From Cloacibacterium caeni (GTDB taxonomy: Bacteria; Bacteroidota; Bacteroidia; Flavobacteriales; Weeksellaceae), in assembly GCF_907163125.1 (NCBI RefSeq), contig NZ_OU015319.1, forward strand, positions 2,294,001-2,358,000: a stretch of 64,000 bases of DNA. The letters are read 5' to 3'. This document shows, one piece after another, positions 49,926-63,150 of the stretch. Position 1 is the first letter of the stretch. Every line of letters begins with the position of its first letter. A model generated the notes under the pieces. It worked only from the letters and a program-made list of their open reading frames with translations. It did no database searches and had not been told where the DNA came from. The position numbers and the translations under genes were made by a program.

Positions 49926-50837
49926 ATGAATAACAGCGCAACCACCAGACGAATTACCAAAATCGCCATCGAATACAATGGCAATGACAAAGGAACAGCA
50001 GAACGAGTATATCAAAACAATCTATTAAGTCAGAACCCAGAACAACAGTTTATAGAAATGAAAACCGTTGCAGACCGCAATAAAAATGTAAAAAACTGGG
50101 CATTGACAGGATATATTTCTCCAGAAAAATCTATAGGAGACCAATTATCCAATGAAGAACTCACACAGTTGGCATTAAGAGCTTTGAAGAAAATTGGAGT
50201 AAGGGATAACAACCAAATGGTTTTAGATATTCATTCCTCAACCAAACAAAAACACATCCACTTTATTGTCAATAGAGTAAATATACACGGAGAGAATACC
50301 ATTAAAGCCCACAACATAGGAGAACTCTTTGGTAAAACCGTTCGTGAAGTTTGCAAAGAAATGAACCTGAAAACCGATATTGAAATTGGCAAAGAAAAGA
50401 AAAAGCAAATGTTGAAAGCGCTCACTACTTCCCTTAGAATTTCAAGAAGCTTTGACGAACTAACGAATAATATGAAAAAGTTAGGTTATAGGGTAACACT
50501 TTCACAAAATGAAAAAGTAGGAATATCAGGAATGAGAATAGTAAAGTTTGAAGATATTAACCATCAAACCGAGAGAGAATACAAACCAGGATATAAACTC
50601 TCCGAAATCACCAATACATTAAAAATTAAAGATATTAAGCAGAAACTTCAAGAAAATCAGGAAAGGACAATCATTTTCAACTCAACAGCAACAGAACAAA
50701 TCAATAAAGATGAACAAGAAAACTCACCATCTGTGAGTAAACAGTTTGAAAATATAGCAAAAGAACTATTAAAGCCCACCTACACTTCATCACCAGAAGA
50801 CGAACTATTAAAAAAGAAAAAACGAAAATTTAGATAA
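49926..50837 (+). CDS. relaxase/mobilization nuclease (MobP-type)
   Basis: This 303-residue protein has the VirD2/MobA-type histidine motif KHIHFIVNRVNIHGE near residues 108-122 (HxHxxxN). An N-terminal region with TGYISPEKS could belong to the catalytic fold; the nucleophile tyrosine is not certain. It nicks oriT and leads the strand in conjugative transfer. Size and the mobC pairing fit Bacteroidota mobilizable elements, which need a helper for mating pores. Confidence 0.85.
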   Translation: MNNSATTRRITKIAIEYNGNDKGTAERVYQNNLLSQNPEQQFIEMKTVADRNKNVKNWALTGYISPEKSIGDQLSNEELTQLALRALKKIGVRDNNQMVLDIHSSTKQKHIHFIVNRVNIHGENTIKAHNIGELFGKTVREVCKEMNLKTDIEIGKEKKKQMLKALTTSLRISRSFDELTNNMKKLGYRVTLSQNEKVGISGMRIVKFEDINHQTEREYKPGYKLSEITNTLKIKDIKQKLQENQERTIIFNSTATEQINKDEQENSPSVSKQFENIAKELLKPTYTSSPEDELLKKKKRKFR

Positions 50838-50838
50838 A

Positions 50839-51483
50839 ATGGAAAATCAAGAAAAAAACCAAAAAGGAAACCAAGAGTACAATCAAGAACGTAATCAAGA
50901 ACACAATCAAAACAATGGCTTAGAACTATTAAAAAAAGTCATTGAAACCAATGAAAGAAACATTGAACAAGGAATAAAAACAGAATTTGTGTATGAAGAT
51001 TTATTGAATATAAAAGGAGCAACAGAATCTACGATGAGGAGATTTAACGCTACAATTTTAAAATTATCAGAATCTTTAGAAAAAGAAGGTCAAGAAAGGA
51101 ATGAATTTATAGAAAGGATACCGAAAACCATTGAAATCAGACCCTCTGAAGATTATTTGAATCTAAATAAAGCACTTGAAAAGAATTCAAAATTTATTAA
51201 AACTATCTTTTATGGGATGATTACGACATTATTCCTTTCAGTTTTAACAACAGCAGGAAACATCTTTTTTACCAAGCAATGGTATGCGGAAAGTATTAAA
51301 TCAAAAAGTGAAATCCGTCAAGAGGTTTTGGATGAAATTAAAAAAGAAGGTCAATCTATTTATAAAGATGAAGACTATCAGCAACTGCTACATAATACTG
51401 AGCTGATGAACAAATGGATGAAGAAAAACCCCAAAGATGCAAAGAATTTTTTGAGATTTAAGGATGGATTTGAAAGTAGATAA
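50839..51483 (+). CDS. mobilization-region membrane protein, unknown function
   Basis: This 214-residue protein starts one base after the relaxase stop. The first 25 residues are a degenerate Asn/Gln/Glu repeat (GNQEYNQERNQEHNQ), then a coiled-coil-like helix, one membrane segment near 120-138 (IFYGMITTLFLSVLTTAG), and a charged tail. Its position suggests a role in transfer, such as anchoring the relaxosome. I know no family name. Confidence 0.65.
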   Translation: MENQEKNQKGNQEYNQERNQEHNQNNGLELLKKVIETNERNIEQGIKTEFVYEDLLNIKGATESTMRRFNATILKLSESLEKEGQERNEFIERIPKTIEIRPSEDYLNLNKALEKNSKFIKTIFYGMITTLFLSVLTTAGNIFFTKQWYAESIKSKSEIRQEVLDEIKKEGQSIYKDEDYQQLLHNTELMNKWMKKNPKDAKNFLRFKDGFESR

Positions 51484-51668
51484 ATATCGAATTATTTAGA
51501 CATATAACTTAAGAAAATAAAAAGAACTCTTAAAAAACATTATTATATAAATTATTAGGTTTTATGCCATAATGGCGTAAAACTTTTTTATTTTTGTATA
51601 ATTCTGACAATTAAAGATTTATTAATTAAAGGTAAGGTTTTTGAGAATTTAATACTAAACTATCCAAT

Positions 51669-54600
51669 ATGAATTTAAAATTTCTATCTACTTTTTTTAA
51701 ACGAAAAGAAAATATTGAAGAAGTATCTGTTATTTCTTCGCTTGCTCCAAAAGTATTAATGAATGAAGAAGATTTAAAAAAAGTAGAACCATATTTGGAT
51801 AAACTGAAAGATACTTTAAATGCTAAAAGTATTAATAATATTGCATTAACAGGTGGATATGGTTCAGGGAAAAGTACAATTTTAAAGACATTCCAATATT
51901 GGAATAAGAATGATTATAATTTTTTGAATATCTCTTTAGCAGCATTTAACCAAACTAAAACAAAAGAAAATTTTAAGGAACTATTTGATTTAAAAATTAA
52001 GAATGGTAAATCTGAAAAAGAGGCAGAAAAAGAGATAGTAAACGAATTTAAGGAAACCATTATAAATAATGAAGAGTTAGAAAGACAGCTTGAAATTAGT
52101 ATTTTACAACAAATTGTTTATAAGGTAAAACCGTCTAATCTACCTGAATCTCGTTTTAAAAGAATTGTAAATATTCCTAATTGGAAATTATGGGGACTTA
52201 TACCATTAAGCTTTACTATTTGGATTATTAGTGTAATTCTTTTGTTTAAATATAATTTTTTAGATTATGTAAATCCTAAGACATGGACATTTAGGGTTAA
52301 GGATTTTGAATTAAGCCCAACTATGATTTTTTTATTTTCCTTTATGGGGATAGGGTATTTTTCTAAATTGGTAGTTTCTTTGTTTAGTAATTCCAAAATA
52401 AATAAGGTAAATTTAAAAGGAGAAATAGAAATTGGAGACAACTCCAATAAATCTATTTTAAATGAACATTACGATGAAATTCTATATTACTTTGAGAAAA
52501 ACCCTTTTAATGTAGTTGTAATTGAAGATTTAGACCGATTTGAGAATACAAACATATTTACCAAATTAAGAGAACTTAATATTTTACTAAATAATGCTGA
52601 TACACTAAAGAATAAAGAAGAATATAAGAAATTTGGAATAAAATTTCTTTATGCCGTTGGAGATGACTTATTCGATGATAAAAAAGAAAGAGTGAAATTC
52701 TTTGAATACATAATTCCCGTTATCCCTTTTATTAATTCTACTAATGCAGAGGAACAACTTAAAACTTTAATAAAAGATTCCGATTTAGAAGAGAATGTTT
52801 TTAGTAAAGAATTTATATCTGATATTACTACATTTATTGATGATATAGATATGAGGTTATTAATTAATATATTCCATGAATTTGTTATTTATAGAAAGGT
52901 ATTAAATCCCAATATTTTAAAAGGAAGTGAGGAAGAGTTATTTGCAATGATAACTTATAAAAACATTGAACCTGAGGACTTTAATAAACTTAATAATAAA
53001 GAAGGTAAATTGTATAATTTGATTAATAATAAGAAATCTTACATTACAGTATTAGTTAAAGAAAAAAATGATAAAATAGCAAAAAAAACTGTTGAAATTG
53101 AAGATATCGAAGAAGAAAACATATCTAATATAAAAGAACTACGACAAATCTATATAAACCAAATTTTAACGAAACTGCCAAACAATGCAATTTATTTTTC
53201 AGAAATAAAGATTAATGATTTGAAAGAAGAAGATAAATTTGATGAATTAATTTCTGAAGGTAAAATTAGCTATAGATACCAACACCCACATTACAGTAAT
53301 TCTCAAAATAATGTTTTAAATTTTGATTTTGATGAAATCGAAAATGAGGTTAATCCTAATTTTACTTTTGAGGATAGAAAATATTTTATAGAAAGTAAAC
53401 ACAATGATAGAATTGAAACCTTACAAAAAGAAATAGAAAAATTAAAGAAAGAAAAAAACGAAATAGAAAATTGGGATTTAACACAAATTTTTAGAGAAGT
53501 AGATATTAACCAATATTTAAGTGAGTTTTCCAATAATGGACTATTAAGAAATTTAGTTTTGGAGGGTTATATTAATGAAAACTACAACGATTATATTTCT
53601 CTGTTCCACGAAGTTTCTCTTACTGTAGATGATAAAAAGTTTGAAAAGAGTGTTAAGGCTTCTTTTAATGAAAGTTTTGAGTATAAACTTACACATAGTG
53701 AAACTATTGCAGACAAATTAGAATTAAAATGGTTTAGTAGAGATTCTATTTTAAATTTTGATTTATTAGATTTTTTAGGTGAGGAATATGATAAATATTC
53801 GCAAAAATATAATGCTTTTATTCAATTATTATCGAATGAAAAACAAAGGTCTATTGAATTTATTGATGGGTATATAGAAAGGAAAAAAGTTCTAAATAGA
53901 TTTATTGAAAAGATTACTATTAAATGGGGTGGTTTTTGGGATTACGTTTTTAATAAAAGTACTTATGATGTTAATAAAAAATATTACATTTTTGAAATAA
54001 TAATTTTGAATTTGAATTTGGAAAAACTGATTGAAGTCCAAAGCGGAAAATTAATTAAGAAAACAATAGAAGAAAATATAAAATATTTATATAATTATGA
54101 TAAAAATTATAGTCCCATTTGGTTTGAATCCCAAATTGAGAAATTGTTACCATTATTAAATATTAAAATTTTGAGGTTAGAGCAACCGAATGAAAATAGT
54201 AAATATTTGTTTGAGTTGATTTACAAAAAAGGACACTATAAAATTACAAATGAAAATATTTTACTTTTATTGAATGAATTTAGTGAAGAATTTGATAATT
54301 TATCTTTTGAAACGACTAATTATTCTGCAATACAGAACTCTAAATGTGAACCTTTGATAAAGTATATCAATGAAGAGATTGATAATTATATAGAAAATGT
54401 TTATTTGAAGTTAGAAAATAATGTAATAGAAGATGAAGAAAGTTTGAAACTACTTTTAAATAATGATAAATTAGATTCTAAATTAAAATTGAAAATTATT
54501 GAAAAAGTAGAAACTAAAATATCCGATTTAAGTTCTATAAATGATATCGAAGTTAAAAAATATCTGTTAATTGAGAATAAAGTTGTTCCTAAATGGGATA

Positions 54601-55430
54601 ATGTAATAAGTTATTATAAAGAAAGTGAAAATAAGATTGATGATAGTTTGGTTAAATATTTGAATTTTGAAAATGTTAATTCTACATTGTCTAAAAATAA
54701 ATTAGTTAGAGAGAATAAAGATTTTGAAATAAGTTTAATGCTATGTAATGAACTTACAGATGTAAATTATGATAAGTTTTTAAATAGTTGTTATTTTGGG
54801 TGGAATAAACTAAATTTTGAAGATGTAGATTTTAATAAAGTTGTATTTCTCACAAATAAAGTTTTAAATACAACAAAAGATAATTATGACATATTAAGAG
54901 AGAATTTTAAAAATAACCACATAAAATTATTAGAGAAAAATTTTACCGAAATTTTAGTAAAATTTGAAGATTTTGAAGCTGATGGAAATGATATTTTATT
55001 AATTTTAAAATCTGAAAAGATAAATATTGTTAATAAATTTGATTTTATTACAAAAATTGATGAAACAATAATTGGAAGTAATAAAGAGATTGCGAAAATT
55101 ATAGGAGAAATTATTTTACAAAAATCTAAAACTATTGATTTAACAATCGATATAAAGAAAATTATATTGAATTCTTTAGTATCTATTGAAAGTAAGGTGA
55201 AATTTGTTACTTTGTATAATGAAAGTTTAGGAACTTCCGAATTAATTGAATTGGTGAAAAACATTAGTTGGTCTTATGGTGAGTTATTTAAGAAACAGCA
55301 TAAACCAACGTTTAAAGCTAATAATTATAATATTGTTCTATTAGGAATACTTAAATCCAAAGGATTAATAAAAAATTTTGATATTGATAAAAAGGATAAA
55401 ACCTTAATTAGGGCAGTAGCGAATTATTAG
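51669..55430 (+). CDS. YobI-family P-loop NTPase, large membrane-associated (defence candidate)
   Basis: This 1,253-residue protein has Walker A GGYGSGKST at about 62-70, Walker B NVVVIEDLDRF at about 281-291, and two membrane segments near 174-194 and 217-238 inserted between them. A long helical remainder of about 950 residues has no recognised motif. The layout fits the YobI/KAP-like NTPases, large proteins with a membrane insertion often found as accessory or phage-related cargo. Base composition is even more AT-rich than the neighbours, and it carries its own leader, so it is probably cargo of the mobile element. Confidence 0.78.
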   Translation: MNLKFLSTFFKRKENIEEVSVISSLAPKVLMNEEDLKKVEPYLDKLKDTLNAKSINNIALTGGYGSGKSTILKTFQYWNKNDYNFLNISLAAFNQTKTKENFKELFDLKIKNGKSEKEAEKEIVNEFKETIINNEELERQLEISILQQIVYKVKPSNLPESRFKRIVNIPNWKLWGLIPLSFTIWIISVILLFKYNFLDYVNPKTWTFRVKDFELSPTMIFLFSFMGIGYFSKLVVSLFSNSKINKVNLKGEIEIGDNSNKSILNEHYDEILYYFEKNPFNVVVIEDLDRFENTNIFTKLRELNILLNNADTLKNKEEYKKFGIKFLYAVGDDLFDDKKERVKFFEYIIPVIPFINSTNAEEQLKTLIKDSDLEENVFSKEFISDITTFIDDIDMRLLINIFHEFVIYRKVLNPNILKGSEEELFAMITYKNIEPEDFNKLNNKEGKLYNLINNKKSYITVLVKEKNDKIAKKTVEIEDIEEENISNIKELRQIYINQILTKLPNNAIYFSEIKINDLKEEDKFDELISEGKISYRYQHPHYSNSQNNVLNFDFDEIENEVNPNFTFEDRKYFIESKHNDRIETLQKEIEKLKKEKNEIENWDLTQIFREVDINQYLSEFSNNGLLRNLVLEGYINENYNDYISLFHEVSLTVDDKKFEKSVKASFNESFEYKLTHSETIADKLELKWFSRDSILNFDLLDFLGEEYDKYSQKYNAFIQLLSNEKQRSIEFIDGYIERKKVLNRFIEKITIKWGGFWDYVFNKSTYDVNKKYYIFEIIILNLNLEKLIEVQSGKLIKKTIEENIKYLYNYDKNYSPIWFESQIEKLLPLLNIKILRLEQPNENSKYLFELIYKKGHYKITNENILLLLNEFSEEFDNLSFETTNYSAIQNSKCEPLIKYINEEIDNYIENVYLKLENNVIEDEESLKLLLNNDKLDSKLKLKIIEKVETKISDLSSINDIEVKKYLLIENKVVPKWDNVISYYKESENKIDDSLVKYLNFENVNSTLSKNKLVRENKDFEISLMLCNELTDVNYDKFLNSCYFGWNKLNFEDVDFNKVVFLTNKVLNTTKDNYDILRENFKNNHIKLLEKNFTEILVKFEDFEADGNDILLILKSEKINIVNKFDFITKIDETIIGSNKEIAKIIGEIILQKSKTIDLTIDIKKIILNSLVSIESKVKFVTLYNESLGTSELIELVKNISWSYGELFKKQHKPTFKANNYNIVLLGILKSKGLIKNFDIDKKDKTLIRAVANY

Positions 55431-55589
55431 AATCATTGAAATATTAATCAAAATAACACTAAGTTTTACTAATTAATTAGGATACTAATTTTACAAAACA
55501 GCCCTAAAAATGTAGGGAAATACTTTCTGTATAGGAAAATTTGGAAGGTTTCCCAATATTTATTTCCTTTATCACAATCACTATTTCAG

Positions 55590-55693
55590 AAAAAAAAGAG
55601 ACCCACGCCGTTGTATATACTGCTAGAGTATTTAGTGAGTGTTCAAGACCTCACCTTACGGGTGTACAAGCACCCTCGTTAAGCTGCTTGCTG
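55590..55693 (-). ncRNA. candidate guide RNA of the Cas12f-like/sigma system
   Basis: The minus-strand sequence begins directly after the Cas12f-like stop codon. Three short hairpins are visible: GGGTG/CACCC (55,675-55,660), GTGAG/CTCAC (55,654-55,635) and ATACT/AGTAT (55,631-55,617). Then ATATACAAC, an AAC end like many Cas12-type scaffolds, leads into GGCGTGGGTCTC (55,609-55,598) and eight T (55,597-55,590). This is the layout of an omega-RNA or Cas12f guide RNA: scaffold, short guide, U-tract termination. Transcription is inferred; it may be processed from the protein mRNA. Confidence 0.72.
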
Positions 55694-56788
55694 CTATCCT
55701 ATAATCAATTCAATACCCGCTTTTTCAGCTTTGTATTTTATTTTGGCTTGCAATTCATAATAACTCCAATTGCGAAGCACAAATTTCTGTTCTTTGGCAA
55801 TCCCAATTTTGTCCTCCTGATTTTTAAGAATAAGAGTCGCTGCCTGTTGCTCAATACAAAAATCAATAAGCTGTTTGCTGTACAAATGAAGCCGATGATT
55901 CACATACCTACTTTCAATATTTTTTCTATTGTAAAGAGCCTTTTTTTTGCGTTTCGCCCCTTTTCCAGAACGGGCAGAAGCAATACCATTTTGAATCCTC
56001 TTCAGACTAGCCTGTATAGCAAGCCTTCGGTAGAGAAACTCCTCCTTTGTGCCAATATTGATGCGCACATTATTGGCTTTAGCTACAATAGGATGTTCCA
56101 GAGACAAAGAAGCTTCAGCAATGATTTCAGGATTTAAAAGATGTTCCTCTTTTTCAAATTCAAATACAGCAAGCCAATAGATTTTCTTGTCTTTCAATTG
56201 AATCTGCGAGGTGCAAAGTTTTATTTCATCTTTTAAAAGGCGTTCCATAATCAAACGCTTATCCGTAAAGTCTTTTCCCAAATACGTTTTTACAGGAATG
56301 GCAAATGCATTAAAACAAAATGCTTTCGTTTCCTCTTCATATCTCATTTTGCTGATGCATTTAACAGGAAGCGGAATAGGAATATCTTTTCTAAAGTTCC
56401 TCAAAGATTTTACACCTCGCCAATAGTCAGATTTTTCTTTTGAAAAAACAGATTGAATGGTATTGTTCAAGCTTCCCAATATATCAGTAGGGATTTCCCC
56501 TTTGAATTTATCAAACACCATTCGTGCTGTAGTATTGGTTTTCGAGCGGTTAAACATTCCCATTTCATCTTTATTGATGTCCGCCAACTTGTATTGAATA
56601 TCTTCCGTAAAATAAAAGAAATCCTTCATCATTTCCTGAACATACAAATGAGAAACAATAAAATTAGCAGCTCTATAACACCGGTTCTGATAGCGATACA
56701 GTTTTTCCCACATCGCTTTTTTCTCCTCGCTAGAAACATCTAGGAGCAACTGAATTCTTCGGGTAAGAGTAATTGTCGATTTTTCCAT
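55694..56788 (-). CDS. nuclease-dead TnpB/Cas12f-like protein (dCas12f candidate)
   Basis: 364 residues from the ATG at 56,788, one base after the sigma-factor TGA; a longer frame to 56,893 would overlap the sigma gene. The C-terminal part aligns with the TnpB/Cas12f RuvC domain: FLYRRLAIQASLKRIQ, a basic SGKGAKRKKKALYNRK stretch, and FVLRNWSYYELQAKIKYKAE. Where active enzymes have the first Asp (DLG), this reads ASLSLEH near 226-232. Where they have the second Glu, it reads TLILKNQED near 318-326. It stops at AGIELIIG, before the zinc ribbon and third Asp. Binding without cutting is inferred. Confidence 0.85.
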   Translation of the reverse strand: MEKSTITLTRRIQLLLDVSSEEKKAMWEKLYRYQNRCYRAANFIVSHLYVQEMMKDFFYFTEDIQYKLADINKDEMGMFNRSKTNTTARMVFDKFKGEIPTDILGSLNNTIQSVFSKEKSDYWRGVKSLRNFRKDIPIPLPVKCISKMRYEEETKAFCFNAFAIPVKTYLGKDFTDKRLIMERLLKDEIKLCTSQIQLKDKKIYWLAVFEFEKEEHLLNPEIIAEASLSLEHPIVAKANNVRINIGTKEEFLYRRLAIQASLKRIQNGIASARSGKGAKRKKKALYNRKNIESRYVNHRLHLYSKQLIDFCIEQQAATLILKNQEDKIGIAKEQKFVLRNWSYYELQAKIKYKAEKAGIELIIG

Positions 56789-56789
56789 T

Positions 56790-57608
56790 TCAAAGAAGTG
56801 TTTCAGAAGTATTTTTTTTACTTTGTAGAAATTGATACGCAAAAAGAAATTCCCGATGAACATCCTTTTCAGATAAATTGAGTTCTTGAGCAATCACCGA
56901 GAAAGAGGCTTTATGCTCAAACCTTCTTTTCAAAATCTCAAGTTGTCGACTGCTGAGTTTATTGGGTTGCTTTTCATGTTCTGAGACTTTTACTTTAGGC
57001 TGTTCAAAAGAACTCCCTTTAATAATGTCCCGAAGGTCATTGATGGCTCTGTTCACTTCATTGCTAATATCTTTTACACTGCTTCCCATAGCTTCTGCGA
57101 TAGGTTTGTACTGGAAGCCATATTCAAGGCAAAGTTCTATGAGGTTTTTCCTTTTAGAATCCAAAACATTTAAAACCTTCTTCACTTCATCTAAATTTTT
57201 CTGTTCAGATTCCTGAAGGAGGAGAAGTTCTTTATCTTGAGCAGGGTCGTAACCAGCCAGATAATCCTGATAGTTCTCGTAACGTTCTAAGGAATTAATA
57301 AGGCGAGTGAATTTATTTCTTGGAGAACTGTAATAAGTGAGGCAATCTCTTTTTAAAACAAACCTTAAAAACCCCAAAATATGATTGGGTGTTTCAATAG
57401 AATCACGTTGCAACCAAAGTTTGAGAAAAACATCCTGAACAAGCGTTTCTACCACAAAATCGTCCTCCACTATTTGTTTTCCTATCCAGAAAAGAAGTCT
57501 TTTGTAGCGCAAATAAATATGTTCTAAAGAGTTTGGGTCGCCTTTTTTCAGCAGTTCATAGAGTTGAGCATCTTTCAGTATCCGAGGCAAAGAGTCTGTT
57601 CTTTTCAT
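56790..57608 (-). CDS. ECF-like RNA polymerase sigma factor with an extra C-terminal HTH
   Basis: This 272-residue protein is longer than the usual 170-200. Region 2 spans about 15-85 (LEHIYLRYKRLLFWIG, ETLVQDVFLKLWLQR, the core-binding helix). Region 4 spans about 145-195 (LIELCLEYGFQYKPIAEAMG, SNEVNRAINDLR). After a linker, residues 218-263 form a second region-4-like helix-turn-helix (LSSRQLEILKRRFEHKASFS, IAQELNLSEKDVHREF). It should recruit RNA polymerase. The following Cas12f-like gene starts one base after its stop, so the two are translationally coupled. No anti-sigma gene is adjacent. Confidence 0.88.
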   Translation of the reverse strand: MKRTDSLPRILKDAQLYELLKKGDPNSLEHIYLRYKRLLFWIGKQIVEDDFVVETLVQDVFLKLWLQRDSIETPNHILGFLRFVLKRDCLTYYSSPRNKFTRLINSLERYENYQDYLAGYDPAQDKELLLLQESEQKNLDEVKKVLNVLDSKRKNLIELCLEYGFQYKPIAEAMGSSVKDISNEVNRAINDLRDIIKGSSFEQPKVKVSEHEKQPNKLSSRQLEILKRRFEHKASFSVIAQELNLSEKDVHREFLFAYQFLQSKKNTSETLL

Positions 57609-57640
57609 AAGCAGTGTGTTTTAGCTGGAAGGAACTGCTT
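57609..57640 (-). promoter_or_regulatory. hairpin at the start of the sigma-factor gene
   Basis: AAGCAGT at 57,609-57,615 and ACTGCTT at 57,634-57,640 are exact complements and end right at the ATG. In mRNA the stem would sit against the start codon and could limit translation. Confidence 0.5.
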
Positions 57641-57708
57641 CGATCATGAAGATGAATTCTTTTGTACCATTCAACACACATACCCACTACATTTTGCCCA
57701 ATAGAAAA

Positions 57709-57720
57709 GGCGTGGAACTC
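57709..57720 (+). other. second, weaker guide-like match
   Basis: GGCGTGGAACTC on the plus strand matches the guide-like GGCGTGGGTCTC at 10 of 12 bases. Taken from the second base, it has a G directly 5'. It points toward the XRE gene. Chance similarity is quite possible. Confidence 0.3.
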
Positions 57721-57728
57721 AACTTACT

Positions 57729-57835
57729 GCATTAGAGGTACTGGTATACCCGTGTACGATAAGAGAGCCCACGCCGCGGTCGTGAGCAAATTTACTTATC
57801 TTCTCGTACACATAAAATTACCAGTTTTCTAATGC
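57729..57835 (-). other. large imperfect hairpin in the leader of the sigma/Cas12f-like operon
   Basis: Four nested stems match across 107 bases: GCATTAGA/TCTAATGC (8 bp), ACTGGTA/TACCAGT (7 bp), GTGTACGA/TCGTACAC (8 bp) and TAAG/CTTA (4 bp). The central loop of about 31 bases contains the guide-like sequence. It could be a folded mRNA leader, a second RNA gene or a protein-binding DNA element. Confidence 0.65.
57761..57776 (-). other. guide-like sequence upstream of the operon (self-target or duplication)
   Basis: Plus-strand AAGAGAGCCCACGCCG differs from AAGAGACCCACGCCG at 55,596-55,610 only by one inserted G. On the minus strand CGGCGTGGG is identical in both. The last base before GCGTGGG is a G, agreeing with a 5'-G target-adjacent motif. 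It lies about 155 bases before the sigma ATG and points toward it. Confidence 0.65.
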
Positions 57836-57897
57836 GAGATTCTAAGCAATTGCTTCAATATTTTGATTCTATATGAATAATTGCATTATGTTATTTG

Positions 57898-57928
57898 CAA
57901 ATATAGTAAAATTATCAATGTAAACCAA
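57898..57928 (-). promoter_or_regulatory. candidate housekeeping promoter of the sigma/Cas12f-like operon
   Basis: On the minus strand TTG at 57,928-57,926 and TATATTTG at 57,905-57,898 are 20 bases apart. This gives a leader of about 280 bases that includes the large hairpin. A second -7-like TAAATTTG at 57,794-57,787 lacks a -33 element. Confidence 0.45.
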
Positions 57929-57939
57929 GTGGATTACAT
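57918..57939. promoter_or_regulatory. palindromic operator between XRE gene and sigma operon
   Basis: ATGTAAACCAAGTGGATTAC then AT has matching arms ATGTAA/TTACAT and CCA/TGG inside. It overlaps the -33 region of the candidate sigma-operon promoter and lies 31 bases before the XRE ATG, so one bound protein could control both directions. Confidence 0.6.
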
Positions 57940-57969
57940 AAAAGTTGTTATTTTTTGCAAAATTGCGTT

Positions 57970-58227
57970 ATGGCTAAACTCAACGAAGAAGATATTTTGC
58001 TTAAAAATAAAATTGCTGATAGGATTAAGTTTCTAAGAGCTAATACTGGTTTAACGCAATCTGAATTTGCTAAAAAATACGAAATAGATAGGCAAATATT
58101 AAACCGTTGGGAAAGTAAAAACAATAAAAGAGGATTGACTATTTATACTATTGCAAAATTTTGCGACCTCCTTGAAATTTCTTTAAAAGATTTTTTCGAC
58201 TTCGAAGTAAAAGAAGATAAAATTTAG
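57970..58227 (+). CDS. XRE-family DNA-binding protein
   Basis: 85 residues from the ATG at 57,970 (MAKLNEEDILLKNKIADRIK). The HTH is FLRANTGLTQSEFAKKYEIDRQ then LNRWESKNN, and a DLLEISLKDFFDFE end resembles the usual XRE tail. It probably binds the palindrome in front of it. It is divergent from the sigma/Cas12f-like operon and may repress it. Confidence 0.82.
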   Translation: MAKLNEEDILLKNKIADRIKFLRANTGLTQSEFAKKYEIDRQILNRWESKNNKRGLTIYTIAKFCDLLEISLKDFFDFEVKEDKI

Positions 58228-58360
58228 AATTCTTGTCAAAACACTTTCAGAAATTGTAAAGCAAGAAAAATTACTATTAAACAGTTTTTTAAACTTATAA
58301 ATGAATAGAATACCGACGAAAGTTGGTTTATTTATTTTTCTTGTTTTTTGACATAGATAT

Positions 58361-58370
58361 GTTATGTGTA
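58361..58370. repeat. GTTATGTGTA inverted repeat, left copy
   Basis: GTTATGTGTA occurs 7 bases before the stop of the GmrSD gene and its exact complement TACACATAAC occurs at 59,986-59,995 beyond its start. The repeats flank the gene as in a cassette. Confidence 0.45.
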
Positions 58371-58376
58371 GGCCGT

Positions 58377-59960
58377 TTAAATAAAGGTTTTTAAAAATTC
58401 AAATAATTTTATCGAACGATTATCAATAAAATCATTAAAATTATTATCAATTAATTTTTGTTCATCAATTAAGGCCGAATTAAGAATATCGATCGAGTCA
58501 TCAGGCATTTCCTGTTCACGATATTGTGAAGGTTCCTTACAATCGATTTTTTTATTATCTGCACGAGAAATTATGCTAAAATTAGCTAGACAGTTTACTG
58601 AATAATCTATATTGTCTTGTTCTAAAGAATTGACAAACGCCTTTGGATAAATGTGATGAAATTCATTTCGATTATAGTCTTTTAAAACGCTTGATAAAGT
58701 TATAAGACTTCCTGAAATAAAACTTTTGGGATTGTTTTGAGCCAAAAGCAAAATTAATGACTTCGTACTTACAGAACCCATTGTGAAATCATTAGTTCTA
58801 AAAAAATGTTCATTAATATTGAACGCAACATTATTTAAATTTGATGTTGTATAATCAGCTTTAAGTTTAATAATCTCTTCAATATCTTTTTGGATATTTT
58901 TGTTTGTTCCAGCGCTATAACGCTTTCCAAAAGAACTTTTCCAAAACCAAGAAATTAATCTCTTGCGTTGTTCATCATTATAGTTAAAATGGTGATTACC
59001 TTGATTAGAGAAGAATACAGATAGTGGAATTAAAAAGTGCTCATATGGTAGATTTGCTATTTTTTCAATTTTTAGATTTCGTTTTAAAAAATCAATAGCA
59101 CCTTTAATTCCATTAGTTACTTCTTGAAATCTTTCTCGGACAGTATTTCCGTTTAATTCAATTAAGTTTTTAGAGCTTGCAGAATGAGTAAGAACAGCAG
59201 AGGATATTCTTAAAAGTAAATCCGCATTACCTCCTAACTCTTCGAAACCATATGGTTTTAATTCTTCTTGCAACTCTTCAAATTTATCTTGTAAATCAAA
59301 TTCTTCACTCCAAGTCCAAGCAGTTAATAATTGTAATGTGTCTAATGGTACTCCCTTTCTATTAATTCTTTCAAACACAATTGCAACTTTAGATTTATCA
59401 TCTGTCTCTAAAGTTTGATAAGGTATTTTTACCTCTTTAAACACAGCTTGAAGACTATCAATTTTTTCTAAAATAGACTCTTCCAATCTAGATGTTGCCC
59501 GTCGATATTTTACTGTATCAAATAAACAGTTTAACGGGAAATGCCTTTCAGGGATTACATCTTCATCTTTTAATGGTACAAATTGTGAGTCTTGAGAATT
59601 TTCATCAGCTTCTAAGTCGTAATATATTTTAAAAGGGTTTTCAATACCTTCAATTTCATCAATTTCGGTTTGAAAAACACCAAATATTGATGTAACCCTT
59701 TGTTGTCCATCTAGAACATAGTCAATAGGATATTCTTCATCTCGTTCAAAAAGTTGGAATGGTCCAAATTGTTTTTCCGTTTCTAGCTTTTCTCTTGTTC
59801 TCCATAATTGTATAGTCCCAAATGGATAGCCTTTGAAAATACTATCCATTAGAAATGCTACAGAATCTGAATCCCAAACAAAACCCCTTTGAAATGCAGG
59901 AATTCTTAAGTTCCCTTTACTTACTTGGTTTAAAATATCTCTTATAGAAAAATCACTCAT
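58377..59960 (-). CDS. DUF262/DUF1524 protein, GmrSD-type modification-dependent restriction enzyme
   Basis: This 527-residue protein has an N-terminal DUF262 ParB-like domain: RIPAFQRGFVWDSDS near residue 17, YPFGTIQLWR near 45 and VLDGQQRVTSIFG near 79. The C-terminal DUF1524 HNH-like nuclease has EFHHIYPKAFVNS near 448 and NFSIISRADNKKI. This is the single-chain arrangement of the type IV GmrS-GmrD system, which cuts modified phage DNA using NTP. It stands alone in the accessory region. Confidence 0.87.
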   Translation of the reverse strand: MSDFSIRDILNQVSKGNLRIPAFQRGFVWDSDSVAFLMDSIFKGYPFGTIQLWRTREKLETEKQFGPFQLFERDEEYPIDYVLDGQQRVTSIFGVFQTEIDEIEGIENPFKIYYDLEADENSQDSQFVPLKDEDVIPERHFPLNCLFDTVKYRRATSRLEESILEKIDSLQAVFKEVKIPYQTLETDDKSKVAIVFERINRKGVPLDTLQLLTAWTWSEEFDLQDKFEELQEELKPYGFEELGGNADLLLRISSAVLTHSASSKNLIELNGNTVRERFQEVTNGIKGAIDFLKRNLKIEKIANLPYEHFLIPLSVFFSNQGNHHFNYNDEQRKRLISWFWKSSFGKRYSAGTNKNIQKDIEEIIKLKADYTTSNLNNVAFNINEHFFRTNDFTMGSVSTKSLILLLAQNNPKSFISGSLITLSSVLKDYNRNEFHHIYPKAFVNSLEQDNIDYSVNCLANFSIISRADNKKIDCKEPSQYREQEMPDDSIDILNSALIDEQKLIDNNFNDFIDNRSIKLFEFLKTFI

Positions 59961-60216
59961 TGTTTAAGGTTTGTTTGGGTTGGTTTACACATAACGACTC
60001 GGCGACTTTGCGAGGTTTTCACAGGAAGCATTACTTCCATGGGGAAATTTTGCAAAAATACTTTTTGAGTTAGCTCAGCGTTCGTTTTTTTTGTTTTGTA
60101 AAGTTAATAAAAAAACAATCTGTTTTTTGTAAAATATTTTGTCGATAAAAAAGCTCCCGAAGCTACTGTTCAACAGGAGTTTTATTGTTGGCTTTGCAAG
60201 CCCAACGAAACTCTAG
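59961..60216. other. gene-free region with small hairpins
   Basis: It contains the right GTTATGTGTA copy at 59,986-59,995 and hairpins such as CTCG/CGAG (about 59,998-60,014) and GGAAG/CTTCC (about 60,023-60,037). It also holds the GTTGGCTTTGCAAGCCCAAC stem near 60,185. No frame of interest is seen. Confidence 0.4.
60147..60164 (-). terminator. short terminator after the nuclease fragment
   Basis: On the minus strand AGCT-TCGGG-AGCT is followed by six T. The stem is short, so it is tentative. Confidence 0.5.
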
Positions 60217-60856
60217 CTAGCAGCCAGCATTTGCATTTACTTCTTTAATAAATTGTTTAATCTTAATGTTATCAAAAATTTCTTGTTGTGATTCTTTATC
60301 ATATTCTAGAAGATTACAAATGTTTTTACATAATAATAGTTTGATTTCAAGTGTTTCAAAATCTATTTGATAGCTTTTGTCTGTGTTTCTTAATTTACAC
60401 ATTTCATTCAAGAATTTCAGAATAGGTGTTTTCTCATATATAGGTAAAGATTTTTTAGTCCTATCTTCTGATTTAATAATCGAAAAACTCCTTTTACGAA
60501 TTATTTTGTTAGCAGCATCAACCACAATGTTTATAGGAATAAAATCTTCTATTTCTATGTCATTTGGGTAAGTACCATCGTATTTGGAAATATATTTATT
60601 TACGATTTTAATATTTGAAAAATTACTCTTCTTTTTTTGACTATCTAGAGATGCAAATTCTGATCTTCCAGCAGAATCTTTATCATAAAGCACAACAACA
60701 ACTGGTTTTTTCTGCATATCTGAACAATAATCATTCATAAATTGTAAATAGCCTGAAAATTTATTTACACCACCAGCTGATAGGATATTTGGTATAGGAA
60801 AACCATATAATTTGTAAATTTGATTTAGATAATCTTTATCTTCTTGTCCCTCTACT
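60217..60856 (-). pseudogene. OLD-type ATP-dependent nuclease, C-terminal fragment
   Basis: The frame from 60,855 to the TAG at 60,217 encodes VEGQEDKDYLNQ, GGVNKFSGYL and VVVLYDKDSAGRSE, the TOPRIM pattern (Glu, then DxD) of OLD-family nucleases. It is the downstream part of the gene whose upstream part lies at 63,755-64,000. The two parts are separated by the IS3-family element, with AGTAGAGGGA repeated at both junctions. A short product from an internal ATG at 60,738 would lack the ATPase. Confidence 0.82.
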
Positions 60857-60935
60857 GTAAATCGTCAGCAAAAAGTGGACACTTTATATTATAAAAATTA
60901 AGGAGTGTTTTCAAAAAAAAGAATTACATTTAATT

Positions 60936-61289
60936 ATGGAAACACCTAAGAAAAAAAGTACTGAAAAATTCGTAAAAGACATTCGTAAAAATACACGAAG
61001 GATTTTTACAGCCGAGCAAAAAATTCTCATTGTAATGGAAGGACTTCGTGCAGAGACCTCTGTTGTAGAATTATGTAGAAAACACAACATTGCTCAATCG
61101 CAATTCTACGCATGGAACAAAGAGTTTATGGAAGCTGGAAAGAAACGTCTCAACGGAGATGTTGTCCGTGAAGCCACCAGTGATGAAGTTTCTAACTTGA
61201 GGAAAGAGAATACCCGATTGAAGGAGATGGTAGCAGATTTGGTTCTACGCTATGACATCGTAAAAAAAAGCTTAGACATGCTGGACTAA
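60936..61289 (+). CDS. IS3-family transposase OrfA
   Basis: This 117-residue protein has a helix-turn-helix (FTAEQKILIVMEGLRAETSV, LCRKHNIAQSQFYAWNKEF) and a C-terminal leucine-zipper-like region (VSNLRKENTRLKEMVADLVL), which is the OrfA pattern. OrfB follows 20 bases later in another frame. It is intact, but the element has lost a working OrfB. Confidence 0.88.
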   Translation: METPKKKSTEKFVKDIRKNTRRIFTAEQKILIVMEGLRAETSVVELCRKHNIAQSQFYAWNKEFMEAGKKRLNGDVVREATSDEVSNLRKENTRLKEMVADLVLRYDIVKKSLDMLD

Positions 61290-61752
61290 TCCATAAATAC
61301 CGAAAATATATGAGACTGACAGCAGGCGAAAAATACGAAATTATTCAAACGGTCACCACAAGTGAGATTGGAGTAAAACGAACCTTAGAAAGCTTTGGGA
61401 TTGCGAGAAGTACGTTTTACAAATGGTATCAAAAGTATTTATAAAACGGCTACGAAGGCTTAGAAACGACCGAAAGAACCTCCAAAAGACAATGGAACAG
61501 CATACCTGAAGAACAAAAAGATTTGGTAGTAGAAATAGCATTGGAACATACTGAACTTTCCTCAAGAGAACTGGCACACAAAATTACCGATGAGCAAGGT
61601 GTTTTCATCTCAGAATCCAGTGTTTACAGGATTTTAAAGCAACGGGATTTAATCCCGGCACCAAATCATTTTCTTCTTTCAGCAGCAAATGAATTTAAAG
61701 ACAAGACCGAATTCGTGCATCAAATGTGGCAAACTGATTTTACTTATTTCAA

Positions 61753-63150
61753 CCCAAATTCCGCAATAGAAAAAAAAGAGTATTTTAGTATTCTAATATC
61801 CAACTGCGTAGCAGTAGAAAAAAATAAGCGATGAAATTCGAGCTATCCTTTACCAATAAAGAGATTACGCCTTGGGGAGGCATGGTGTTTTTAAAGCAAA
61901 TGTTGGACAAAATCGGCTTTAGAGAGCAAATTGAAAAATGCGAATCTTTACCTGTGTCACTTTCCAATAATTCTTATAAAAAAGAAGTTTTGCTTGAATC
62001 TTTTATTACGAGTATTTGGTGTGGTGCCAATCGTTTTTTGCACACAGAAATTACCCGTGCAGATAAGGCTCTTGGGGAAATATTTGACTGGCGAAAGACC
62101 CCTGCTCAGGACGCATATAAACGCTATTTTGGCAAGTTTACACAACACATCAACCAGCAAGTTGGGCATTATTTTTTCAGTTGGTTTTTTCAGAATTTGA
62201 ACCTCAATTATTTTACGTTAGACATTGATTCATCTGTAATTACTCGATACGGAGAGCAAGAGGGAGCAAAAAAAGGCTACAATCCTAAGAAAAAAGGAAG
62301 AAACAGCCATCATCCTATCATTGCATTTGTGAACGATGTAAAGATGGTCGCTAATTTTTGGCTCAGGAGCGGCAATACTTCTTCGGCAAATAATTTTGTA
62401 GGATTTTTAGAAGAAACACTCTTAAATTTTGGGGATAAGAAAGTAGGATTAGTTCGTTTGGATAGTGGTTTTTTCCAGAAAGACATTATGGATTATCTTG
62501 AATTAAAAACACTCCAATACATCATCGCTGCAAAATTTACTCACCCCATTCAACACTTGATAGACCAGCAAGATTTTTGGATAAAAGTTGATGAGGGCAT
62601 CGAAATTTGCGACAAATATTATCAAGCAAAAAACTGGGAAAAGCCAAGAAGGATAGTCATTGTAAGGCAAAAAATAGCACAACGGCCGAATGCGGCAGGC
62701 CGAATATTAAGCCTGTTTCCGGAAGATGAAATCCATAGAAATTATCGCTATTCAGCCTATATTACCAACCAAGAACAATCGGCAACAGATGTTTGGAGAA
62801 CGTACCGAAACAGAGGCGATGCAGAGAATCGAATCAAGGAATTAAAGGCAGATTTTGGAGCCGAAAGTTTTAACCTTAAAGGCTTTTTCCCTACAGAAGC
62901 TGCACTTATATTTTCGATGATTGCTTATAATCTGATGTCAATTTTCAGACTGTTTGTTCTTCAGGAAAAAACGCAGAAAACATTATCTACACTACGATAT
63001 AGAACCTTTGCTATTGGAGCTTATTTTGAAAAAGTAGGTGACACACTCAAACTGAAGATTGCACTCACCAAAAAACGCAGAAAATGGTTCGTCGGAATTT
63101 GGGATTACCCCATAGACTTATCTCAAAAAATTTCAACTGCGTGATTTGGG
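61753..63150 (+). mobile_element. IS1380-family insertion sequence, intact
   Basis: The 1,398-bp element has inverted ends CCCAAATTCCGCAATAG and, read inward from the right, CCCAAATCACGCAGTTG. TTCAA at 61,748-61,752 and 63,151-63,155 is a 5-bp target duplication. It carries one transposase gene. Confidence 0.9.
61831..63144 (+). CDS. IS1380-family transposase
   Basis: This 437-residue DDE transposase has FTLDIDSSVITRYGEQEG (first Asp near residue 130), KVGLVRLDSGFFQKD (second Asp near 212) and YRNRGDAENRIKELKADFG with the glutamate near 333. It has the complete length of the family and no stop. It fills nearly the whole element. Confidence 0.93.
   Translation: MKFELSFTNKEITPWGGMVFLKQMLDKIGFREQIEKCESLPVSLSNNSYKKEVLLESFITSIWCGANRFLHTEITRADKALGEIFDWRKTPAQDAYKRYFGKFTQHINQQVGHYFFSWFFQNLNLNYFTLDIDSSVITRYGEQEGAKKGYNPKKKGRNSHHPIIAFVNDVKMVANFWLRSGNTSSANNFVGFLEETLLNFGDKKVGLVRLDSGFFQKDIMDYLELKTLQYIIAAKFTHPIQHLIDQQDFWIKVDEGIEICDKYYQAKNWEKPRRIVIVRQKIAQRPNAAGRILSLFPEDEIHRNYRYSAYITNQEQSATDVWRTYRNRGDAENRIKELKADFGAESFNLKGFFPTEAALIFSMIAYNLMSIFRLFVLQEKTQKTLSTLRYRTFAIGAYFEKVGDTLKLKIALTKKRRKWFVGIWDYPIDLSQKISTA

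What the first reader, a model, noticed from the sequence alone, without database searches (positions are those of the whole stretch)
55590..57608. Sigma factor plus nuclease-dead Cas12f-like protein plus adjacent RNA: an RNA-guided transcription module
Seen: an ECF-like sigma gene and a truncated TnpB/Cas12f-like gene separated by one base (TGA-A-ATG), followed directly by a structured RNA candidate. The RuvC positions read ASLSLEH and LKNQED, and the zinc ribbon with the third Asp is absent. Established, from memory: nuclease-dead Cas12f homologues linked to ECF sigma factors have been reported in Bacteroidota as RNA-guided activators using a minimal 5'-G motif. Inference: this locus is such a system, where the guide replaces promoter recognition and the sigma factor brings RNA polymerase. 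No transposase tnpA or adaptation gene lies beside it.
Basis: partly seen in the sequence, partly recalled or inferred. Interest (0 to 1): 0.97.

Follow-up and report, generated by a model that had tools for sequence, protein, structure and literature searches.

The report
RNA-guided sigma factor and its target
The window holds a real pair of genes, a sigma factor and a cutting-dead CRISPR-like protein with its guide RNA, of a kind already known to switch genes on by RNA guidance, and in relatives the guides point at a folded, switch-like RNA leader in front of nutrient-uptake genes.

Summary
Observation confirmed, interpretation supported. Sigma gene 56790-57608(-) and dCas12f gene 55694-56788(-) resemble, over all or nearly all their length, the solved dCas12f (9n9c) and RpoE (9n9q), whose sequences are those of Allomuricauda (Flagellimonas) taeanensis. 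None of 28 homologues keeps the RuvC D or E. The RNA is a guide RNA: conserved scaffold, then guide GGCGTGGGTCTCTTTTTTTT (55609-55590). So: new member of a known kind.

Beyond the finding is the target. Upstream of sigma (57698-57849) lies a covarying leader RNA without significant Rfam match, with two mutually exclusive helices, one terminator-like. It occurs in 85 of 199 relatives; 65 of 98 examined precede SusC-type, TlpA-type or sigma genes. 28 of 41 guides match such leaders over >=8 nt; a relative with the window's guide has a 14-nt match before a susCD operon. In the taeanensis group the guide hits 180-215 nt past this RNA in 7 of 8 leaders, after a 5'-G. I propose that guided initiation bypasses the attenuator. 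In the window's own genome only its two own leaders and one other match, over 8 nt; its natural target stays open.

The parts
56790..57608 (-). ECF-type sigma factor (272 aa) with region 2 and two region-4-like helix-turn-helix stretches
   Evidence: PDB 9n9q_C RpoE E 1.1e-77
55694..56788 (-). nuclease-dead Cas12f/TnpB-like protein (364 aa), RuvC acids lost, no zinc ribbon
   Evidence: guided_TnpB profile, below its cut-off; PDB 9n9c, 9n9m, 9n9o, 9n9q; E 1.3e-149
55610..55680 (-). guide RNA scaffold, three helices, ending ...TATATACAAC
55590..55609 (-). guide GGCGTGGGTCTCTTTTTTTT, running into a T tract
57698..57849 (-). structured leader RNA element (model R1) 5' of the sigma gene
   Evidence: 171 bits, E 8.9e-37 by its own model, which was built with this copy among 41; covariation
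57761..57775 (-). site GGCGTGGGCTCTCTT in the leader that the guide copies over its first 8 nt; holds the 5' arm of the terminator-like helix
57705..57720 (-). 3' arm GAGTTCCACGCC of the terminator-like helix, followed by TTTT

Best explanation
This is a dCas12f-sigmaE RNA-guided transcription module. The guide RNA encoded directly 3' of dcas12f loads dCas12f; the complex forms an R-loop without cutting, and the co-encoded sigma factor brings RNA polymerase, which starts downstream of the R-loop (mechanism recalled from published work on the F. taeanensis relative, not shown here). Shown here by comparison: guides of relatives match, in sense orientation, conserved leader regions of outer-membrane uptake operons. 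In Chryseobacterium-type systems the matched site is the switching strand of a structured leader RNA; in the taeanensis group it lies about 180-215 nt past that RNA. Inferred: initiation from the R-loop gives transcripts that lack the 5' arm of the leader's terminator, so the module overrides a cis-acting attenuator. In the window's own genome the guide matches the leaders of its own two operon copies and one other element over 8 nt, so a positive loop on itself is possible but unproven.
For: PDB matches of both proteins (14,15) and identity of the solved chains to the A. taeanensis locus (70,89,90). RuvC acids absent in 28 of 28. gRNA scaffold (63,69). Guide-leader runs of 8 nt or more in 28 of 41 guides, each reached by 0-2 of 100 letter-shuffled leader sets. 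In G037, which has the window's guide, the 13-mer GCGTGGGTCTCTT occurs exactly twice in the genome: in the guide and in a leader before susC and susD (53,59,92). In G092 a guide in another register matches one leader over 12 nt after a G (58,77). Taeanensis group: 7 of 8 leaders of other operons have the site at +332 to +365 after a 5'-G, 0 of 500 shuffled guides as good; the six of these eight leaders whose first ORF was held precede SusC-type ORFs (96,97). Alternative helices both covary (81,82); T fraction after the terminator arm 0.78 against 0.32 overall.
Against: No expression, binding or transcription data. In its own genome the window's guide has no site with fewer than 2 mismatches over nt 2-14 outside its two gRNA genes and no leader run longer than 8 nt; positions 10, 12 and 16 mismatch its own leader even with wobble pairs. 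Own-genome pattern counts do not exceed their reversed-pattern controls by more than one (23: 9 v 13; 53: 14 v 28; 76: 9 v 8). 13 of 41 guides have no 8-nt leader match, several being extra guides in arrays with unknown targets. If pairing starts at the first nucleotide after ACAAC, the base 5' of the site is A, C, T or G (96). In A. taeanensis itself the leader site has 3 mismatches in 16, and two other sites have 2, both inside ORFs and after a T (86,98). Own sigma leaders of the taeanensis group are not matched (0 of 4, 96), so autoregulation is not a family rule.
Confidence: 0.9

Rival explanations
1. Autoregulatory loop: in this genome the module mainly targets the leader of its own operon (two copies), amplifying its own expression.
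For: The only sites in the window for GGCGTGGGYNYNY are the guide and the own leader; in the own genome GGCGTGRGYNYNY gives nine sites: two guides, two own leaders, one further leader element (1072085) and four sites outside the leaders.
Against: Nine sites against eight for the reversed control pattern. 8 nt exact only, with true mismatches after that. In the taeanensis group 0 of 4 own leaders match. Guide and own leader may resemble each other only because these leaders share this strand.
Confidence: 0.4
2. RNA-RNA action: the guide end acts in trans on leader transcripts, pairing with the terminator 3' arm (GAGUUCCACGCC) and preventing termination, with no DNA targeting.
For: The guide copies the terminator 5' arm, so it could pair with the 3' arm.
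Against: Does not explain the sigma factor; taeanensis-group guides lie past the terminator; the solved relative is a dCas12f-sigma entry.
Confidence: 0.07
3. Transposon-end similarity: GGCGTGGG is a shared left-end and right-end motif of a TnpB-like mobile unit, not a guide-target pair.
For: The 2.3-kb unit is present twice in the genome; the two copies align over 2302 bp, and beyond that only one 91-bp stretch upstream aligned. TnpB ancestry.
Against: The leader occurs in 60 of 173 relatives without a dCas12f match; the match begins exactly where the scaffold ends; other registers and other sites are matched in other clades.
Confidence: 0.05
4. Decayed remnant: an inactive leftover of a TnpB or Cas12f element.
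For: RuvC acids and zinc ribbon are lost.
Against: Same losses in 28 of 28 homologues with full-length dCas12f frames; sigma ORF 1 or 2 nt upstream in 27 of 28; solved relative.
Confidence: 0.03

Closest known systems
dCas12f-sigmaE RNA-guided transcription system of Flagellimonas (Allomuricauda) taeanensis (PDB 9n9c, 9n9m, 9n9o, 9n9q)
   Same: Gene pair and order, full-length protein similarity (dCas12f best segment 62% identical), lost RuvC acids, C-terminus without zinc ribbon, gRNA directly 3' with a scaffold ending ATACAAC, a leader element 5' of sigma
   Different: Guide sequence and its place: the window guide copies the leader's switching strand, the taeanensis guide fits a site about 185 nt past the leader RNA of a SusC-type operon. 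The window unit is present twice in its genome.
TldR (nuclease-dead TnpB repressors; abstract and passages of PMC13418256 seen)
   Same: Exapted nuclease-dead TnpB lineage acting with a guide on transcription
   Different: TldR represses flagellin genes (PMC13418256); here a sigma factor is co-encoded. Absence of a sigma partner in TldR is recalled.
Type V-F CRISPR-Cas12f
   Same: Sequence similarity to solved Cas12f chains; scaffold end resembles a Cas12f repeat end (recalled)
   Different: RuvC acids lost; no adaptation gene among the six window neighbours tested; single guide or short gRNA tandem instead of a repeat-spacer array

Membership tests
dCas12f-sigmaE RNA-guided transcription | ECF sigma gene directly upstream of dcas12f | tested here: met
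   Gap of 1 nt; 27 of 28 homologues have a sigma ORF ending 1 or 2 nt before dcas12f after I corrected a one-codon offset in six printed rows; L027 has a broken sigma frame
dCas12f-sigmaE RNA-guided transcription | Homology to the solved dCas12f and its RpoE | tested here: met
   E 1.3e-149 over residues 1-364 of 364 and E 1.1e-77 over 17-263 of 272
dCas12f-sigmaE RNA-guided transcription | RuvC acidic residues lost | tested here: met
   0 of 28 keep the D or E (positions taken from the alignment to a Cas12f chain)
dCas12f-sigmaE RNA-guided transcription | Guide RNA encoded beside dcas12f | tested here: met
   Scaffold conserved in 28 sequences, helices counted; expression not tested
dCas12f-sigmaE RNA-guided transcription | Targets beside a minimal 5'-G motif (recalled) | tested here: inconclusive
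   G precedes GCGTGRG in 73 of 73 leader elements with that motif (79 examined) and the site in 7 of 8 taeanensis-group leaders; but if the window guide pairs from its first nt, the preceding base varies
dCas12f-sigmaE RNA-guided transcription | Guide-dependent recruitment of RNA polymerase and promoter-free initiation | not testable with these tools
   needs experiment
TldR | Nuclease-dead TnpB repressor without sigma partner (recalled) | tested here: not met
   sigma co-encoded; best solved match is the sigma-linked dCas12f
CRISPR-Cas12f immune effector | Active RuvC, adaptation genes | tested here: not met
   RuvC acids absent; of six window neighbours tested with Pfam none matched an adaptation gene
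Described Rfam RNA family (for the leader) | Match to one of 4227 Rfam models | tested here: not met
   0 matches at E <= 1 in window 55400-58000; one match over 8 loci, Histone3 at 21.8 bits against a gathering score of 34, in L071 outside the leader

The most novel reading that the evidence does not exclude
An RNA-guided sigma factor whose job is to override RNA attenuators: one guide, rich in letters that tolerate wobble pairs, addresses the conserved switching strand of a previously uncatalogued leader RNA, so that a whole regulon of outer-membrane uptake operons is started inside or past its own leader and escapes attenuation. Two clades reached this in two different places of the same kind of leader.
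Probability: 0.45. Interest if true: 0.86.

Novelty: new member of a known kind. Interest (0 to 1): 0.72.

Why it matters
The protein system is known, but what such modules regulate in nature is, as far as I know, the open question. The comparison here gives a concrete answer to test: the guides address leaders of SusC-type uptake operons that share a structured, attenuator-like RNA, with sites and positions listed. That RNA has no significant Rfam match, is found in 85 of 199 relatives, and may itself be a new switch. A natural activator that bypasses an RNA switch by guided initiation would link two regulatory layers not known to me to be joined.

Tried and rejected
In what was listed, library searches (20 of 53 listed; 10 of 141 listed) showed no paper on dCas12f-sigma by title or abstract; the long review PMC12857756, which holds some of the terms, was not opened. 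One search (15 of 264 listed) on structured RNA before SusC gave a flavobacterial transcriptome paper (PMC9723704, passages only), which in the passages seen does not describe this leader. PMC12908284 (passages) cites the TldR work at the one place found. Plasmids and phages: three distant matches at 25-28% identity; viral contigs: 21 relatives, 27-38% identical. Further targets in the own genome: pattern scans gave no real excess over reversed controls, and the four sites outside leaders showed no leader around them. Transposon-end reading of the repeated motif: rejected (see rivals). Extra guides in arrays (TGAGCGGTTTTC, GGGGCGGTTTTC, AGAGCTCCTCAC, AGAGCGCCTTTC) and GCAAGGGCCAATT found no leader target. 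Structure prediction was not run, because the relatives are solved.

Rows dropped: fragments L036 and L037; the 6 weakest of 85 leader matches (E 2.7e-6 to 0.0057; among them the only one of G103); three of 44 guides had no leader left to compare. The guide pattern missed at least one gRNA of G052 that one search shows. Leaders L339 (cut by its contig end) and L346 (of the other leader type) were left out; L297's genome was not held. One search's output was cut. The 50 sequences of alignment A5 were picked by me for variety.

Full report
Observation. On the minus strand the window holds a 272-aa sigma factor (56790-57608) and a 364-aa TnpB/Cas12f-like protein (55694-56788) separated by one base. 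Pfam finds sigma region 2 and two region-4 stretches; NCBIfam finds the guided_TnpB profile over residues 19-362, below its cut-off. A search of solved structures is decisive: the TnpB-like protein matches 'Nuclease-deactivated Cas12f' (9n9c, 9n9m, 9n9o, 9n9q) over its full length at E 1.3e-149, and the sigma matches 'RpoE' of entry 9n9q over residues 17-263 at E 1.1e-77. The proteins of the Allomuricauda taeanensis locus (L282 and L326; in recalled work called Flagellimonas taeanensis) align letter for letter with those chains. In 28 full-length homologues none keeps the RuvC aspartate or glutamate, and all end before the zinc ribbon (positions from the alignment).

Family and host. Of 199 relatives (own genome included) 26 hold a dCas12f match. 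A collection scan confirmed 221 relatives, of which the best 80 were kept: Chryseobacterium and kin at 77-86% identity, then marine Flavobacteriaceae, Echinicola and others at 60-64%. The own genome carries the unit twice: 2302 bp at 96% identity; of the outer flanks only one 91-bp stretch upstream aligned, at 85%.

Guide RNA. Downstream of dcas12f lies a conserved scaffold AGGGTG...CACCC...GTGAG...CTCAC...hairpin...ATACAAC. Its three helices are 97.3% paired in 28 sequences, 0 of 500 shuffles as high; three pairs in helix 3 change on both sides, a number that 75 of 500 shuffles reach. The guide follows. In the window it is GGCGTGGGTCTCTTTTTTTT. Some genomes carry gRNA units in tandem with different guides: three in G052, G104 and G117, two in G092; in G117 a dcas12f 3'-end remnant of 92 codons lies among the units, in G104 a short one (by eye).

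The leader. Upstream of sigma lies a 150-nt element with strong covariation in 41 sequences: 90.1% of cells paired, 17 pairs with both-sided changes, 0 of 500 shuffles as high, slid controls at 35-44%. Against it: helix 4 is only 51.6% paired as aligned, the count of further pair types is reached by 128 of 500 shuffles, and the sequences were chosen through a pattern in the apical hairpin, so helices 5 and 6 are biased. Two mutually exclusive helices share the strand GGCGTGGG: an apical hairpin (99.7% paired, three pairs with both-sided change) and a terminator-like stem with GAGTTCCACGCC (94.9%, four pairs); in 50 more diverse sequences picked by me 0 of 500 shuffles reach the paired cells or the both-sided pairs of either. 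In the first set the terminator stem had one both-sided pair, reached by 387 of 500 shuffles. Nine nt after the stem are 78% T, against 32% overall. Two stretches of the window's own copy, one for each form, fold with z about -4.5. Rfam gave no match at E <= 1 in window 55400-58000; over 8 loci it gave one, Histone3 at 21.8 bits against its gathering score of 34, at L071:1954-1998 (minus strand), outside the leader. A covariance model finds the element in 85 of 199 relatives: 25 of the 26 with dCas12f and 60 of the 173 without. In 62 of the 80 named loci it matches upstream of dcas12f. Of 98 elements examined (79 of 85 from dCas12f genomes, 19 picked from others) 33 have a SusC-type ORF downstream, 28 a sigma of this family, 16 an ORF of an unnamed family, 9 a TlpA-type ORF, 6 the family of a 149-aa ORF, 12 none of these; classes overlap, and 65 of 98 have SusC, TlpA or sigma (Pfam of examples).

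Guide and leader. In the dCas12f genomes 44 gRNAs were picked up, 41 with a leader to compare. Of these, 28 match a leader of the same genome exactly over 8 nt or more from the first guide base; letter-shuffled leaders reach that in 0-2 of 100 trials each; 13 do not. With wobble pairs allowed, 13 of 41 reach 15 nt or more, without a control. Many of these guides share ancestry, so they are not 28 independent tests. Three cases go beyond that. G037 has the window's guide, and its 13-mer occurs exactly twice in that genome: in the gRNA and in one leader, before a SusC (1000 aa) and SusD (456 aa) operon. G092 has a guide in another register, AGCTCACTTATC, that matches one of its leaders over 12 nt after a G. 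The taeanensis group uses a wholly different guide, TTGTGGGATA(T/C)ACGCT: 7 of 8 leaders of other operons carry its site 332-365 nt after the leader start (about 180-215 nt past its end), after a 5'-G, with 0 of 500 shuffled guides as good; the eighth has its best match elsewhere, with 10 of 500 as good; 0 of 4 own sigma leaders have it. The first ORF could be read for six of the eight and is a SusC-type TonB plug protein in all six. In A. taeanensis itself the leader site has 3 mismatches in 16; the genome holds 34 sites with up to 3 mismatches against 29 for the reversed control, and two others have 2 mismatches, both inside ORFs and after a T.

Mechanism. Shown: gene pair, gRNA gene, dead RuvC, leaders with alternative helices, guide sites in sense orientation upstream of uptake operons. 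Recalled, not read: dCas12f-sigmaE complexes start transcription at a set distance downstream of the R-loop beside a minimal 5'-G. Inferred: in both guide classes any start downstream of the R-loop yields RNA without the terminator's 5' arm, so guided initiation would bypass the attenuator. That the leader attenuates at all is inferred from structure alone.

The window itself. In its genome the model finds four leaders: two before its own modules, one before the 149-aa ORF beside genes read on the other strand, one weak. The guide matches three of them over 8 nt only, and none carries the TCTCTT extension. So either a short match suffices (autoregulation), or the unit came from a host with the cognate susCD leader, or the target was missed. 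The 5'-G rule is met if pairing starts at the second guide base and not if it starts at the first.

Verdict. The added value is the likely natural target logic. Searches that did not show it in print were made; the key papers are not held, so I do not claim that it is unreported.

Noticed in passing
window 57698-57849 and 85 of 199 relatives: Structured leader RNA without a significant Rfam match, with a pseudoknot-like pairing (TCTC/GAGA, 97.5% of cells paired) and two alternative helices; a candidate new cis-regulatory RNA in its own right.
   Followed up: yes
L016/L228, L029, L040, L033: Tandem gRNA units with different guides, in G117 with a dcas12f 3'-end remnant among them: guide arrays seemingly made by tandem duplication; several guides have no known target.
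   Followed up: partly
L203 (own genome C1:1072009) and five other elements: A leader variant (GGCGTGGGCGCTCGC in 5 of 6) sits before a family of about 130-160-aa ORFs; the one tested has no Pfam match. In the own genome the neighbouring genes read on the other strand look like a mobile element.
   Followed up: partly
L058:1784-2329 and 15 other elements: An ORF family (101-258 aa as read) lies downstream of the leader in 16 of 98 elements; the member tested has no Pfam match. In L077 a SusC-type ORF follows it.
   Followed up: no
window 49926-63144: The module sits among a relaxase, a YobI-like P-loop NTPase (1253 aa), a GmrSD-type restriction protein, a small helix-turn-helix protein and a DDE transposase: perhaps a mobile or defence-like island.
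   Followed up: partly
L027 (G047): The sigma gene is split into two frames (201 and 82 aa) beside a full-length dcas12f, a gRNA and a leader.
   Followed up: no
leaders of the taeanensis group, e.g. L324 and L330: By eye, the site of the taeanensis-type guide (TTGTGGGATA) faces a complementary CCCACAA or CCCATAA stretch about 50 nt downstream, so it too may lie in a hairpin.
   Followed up: no
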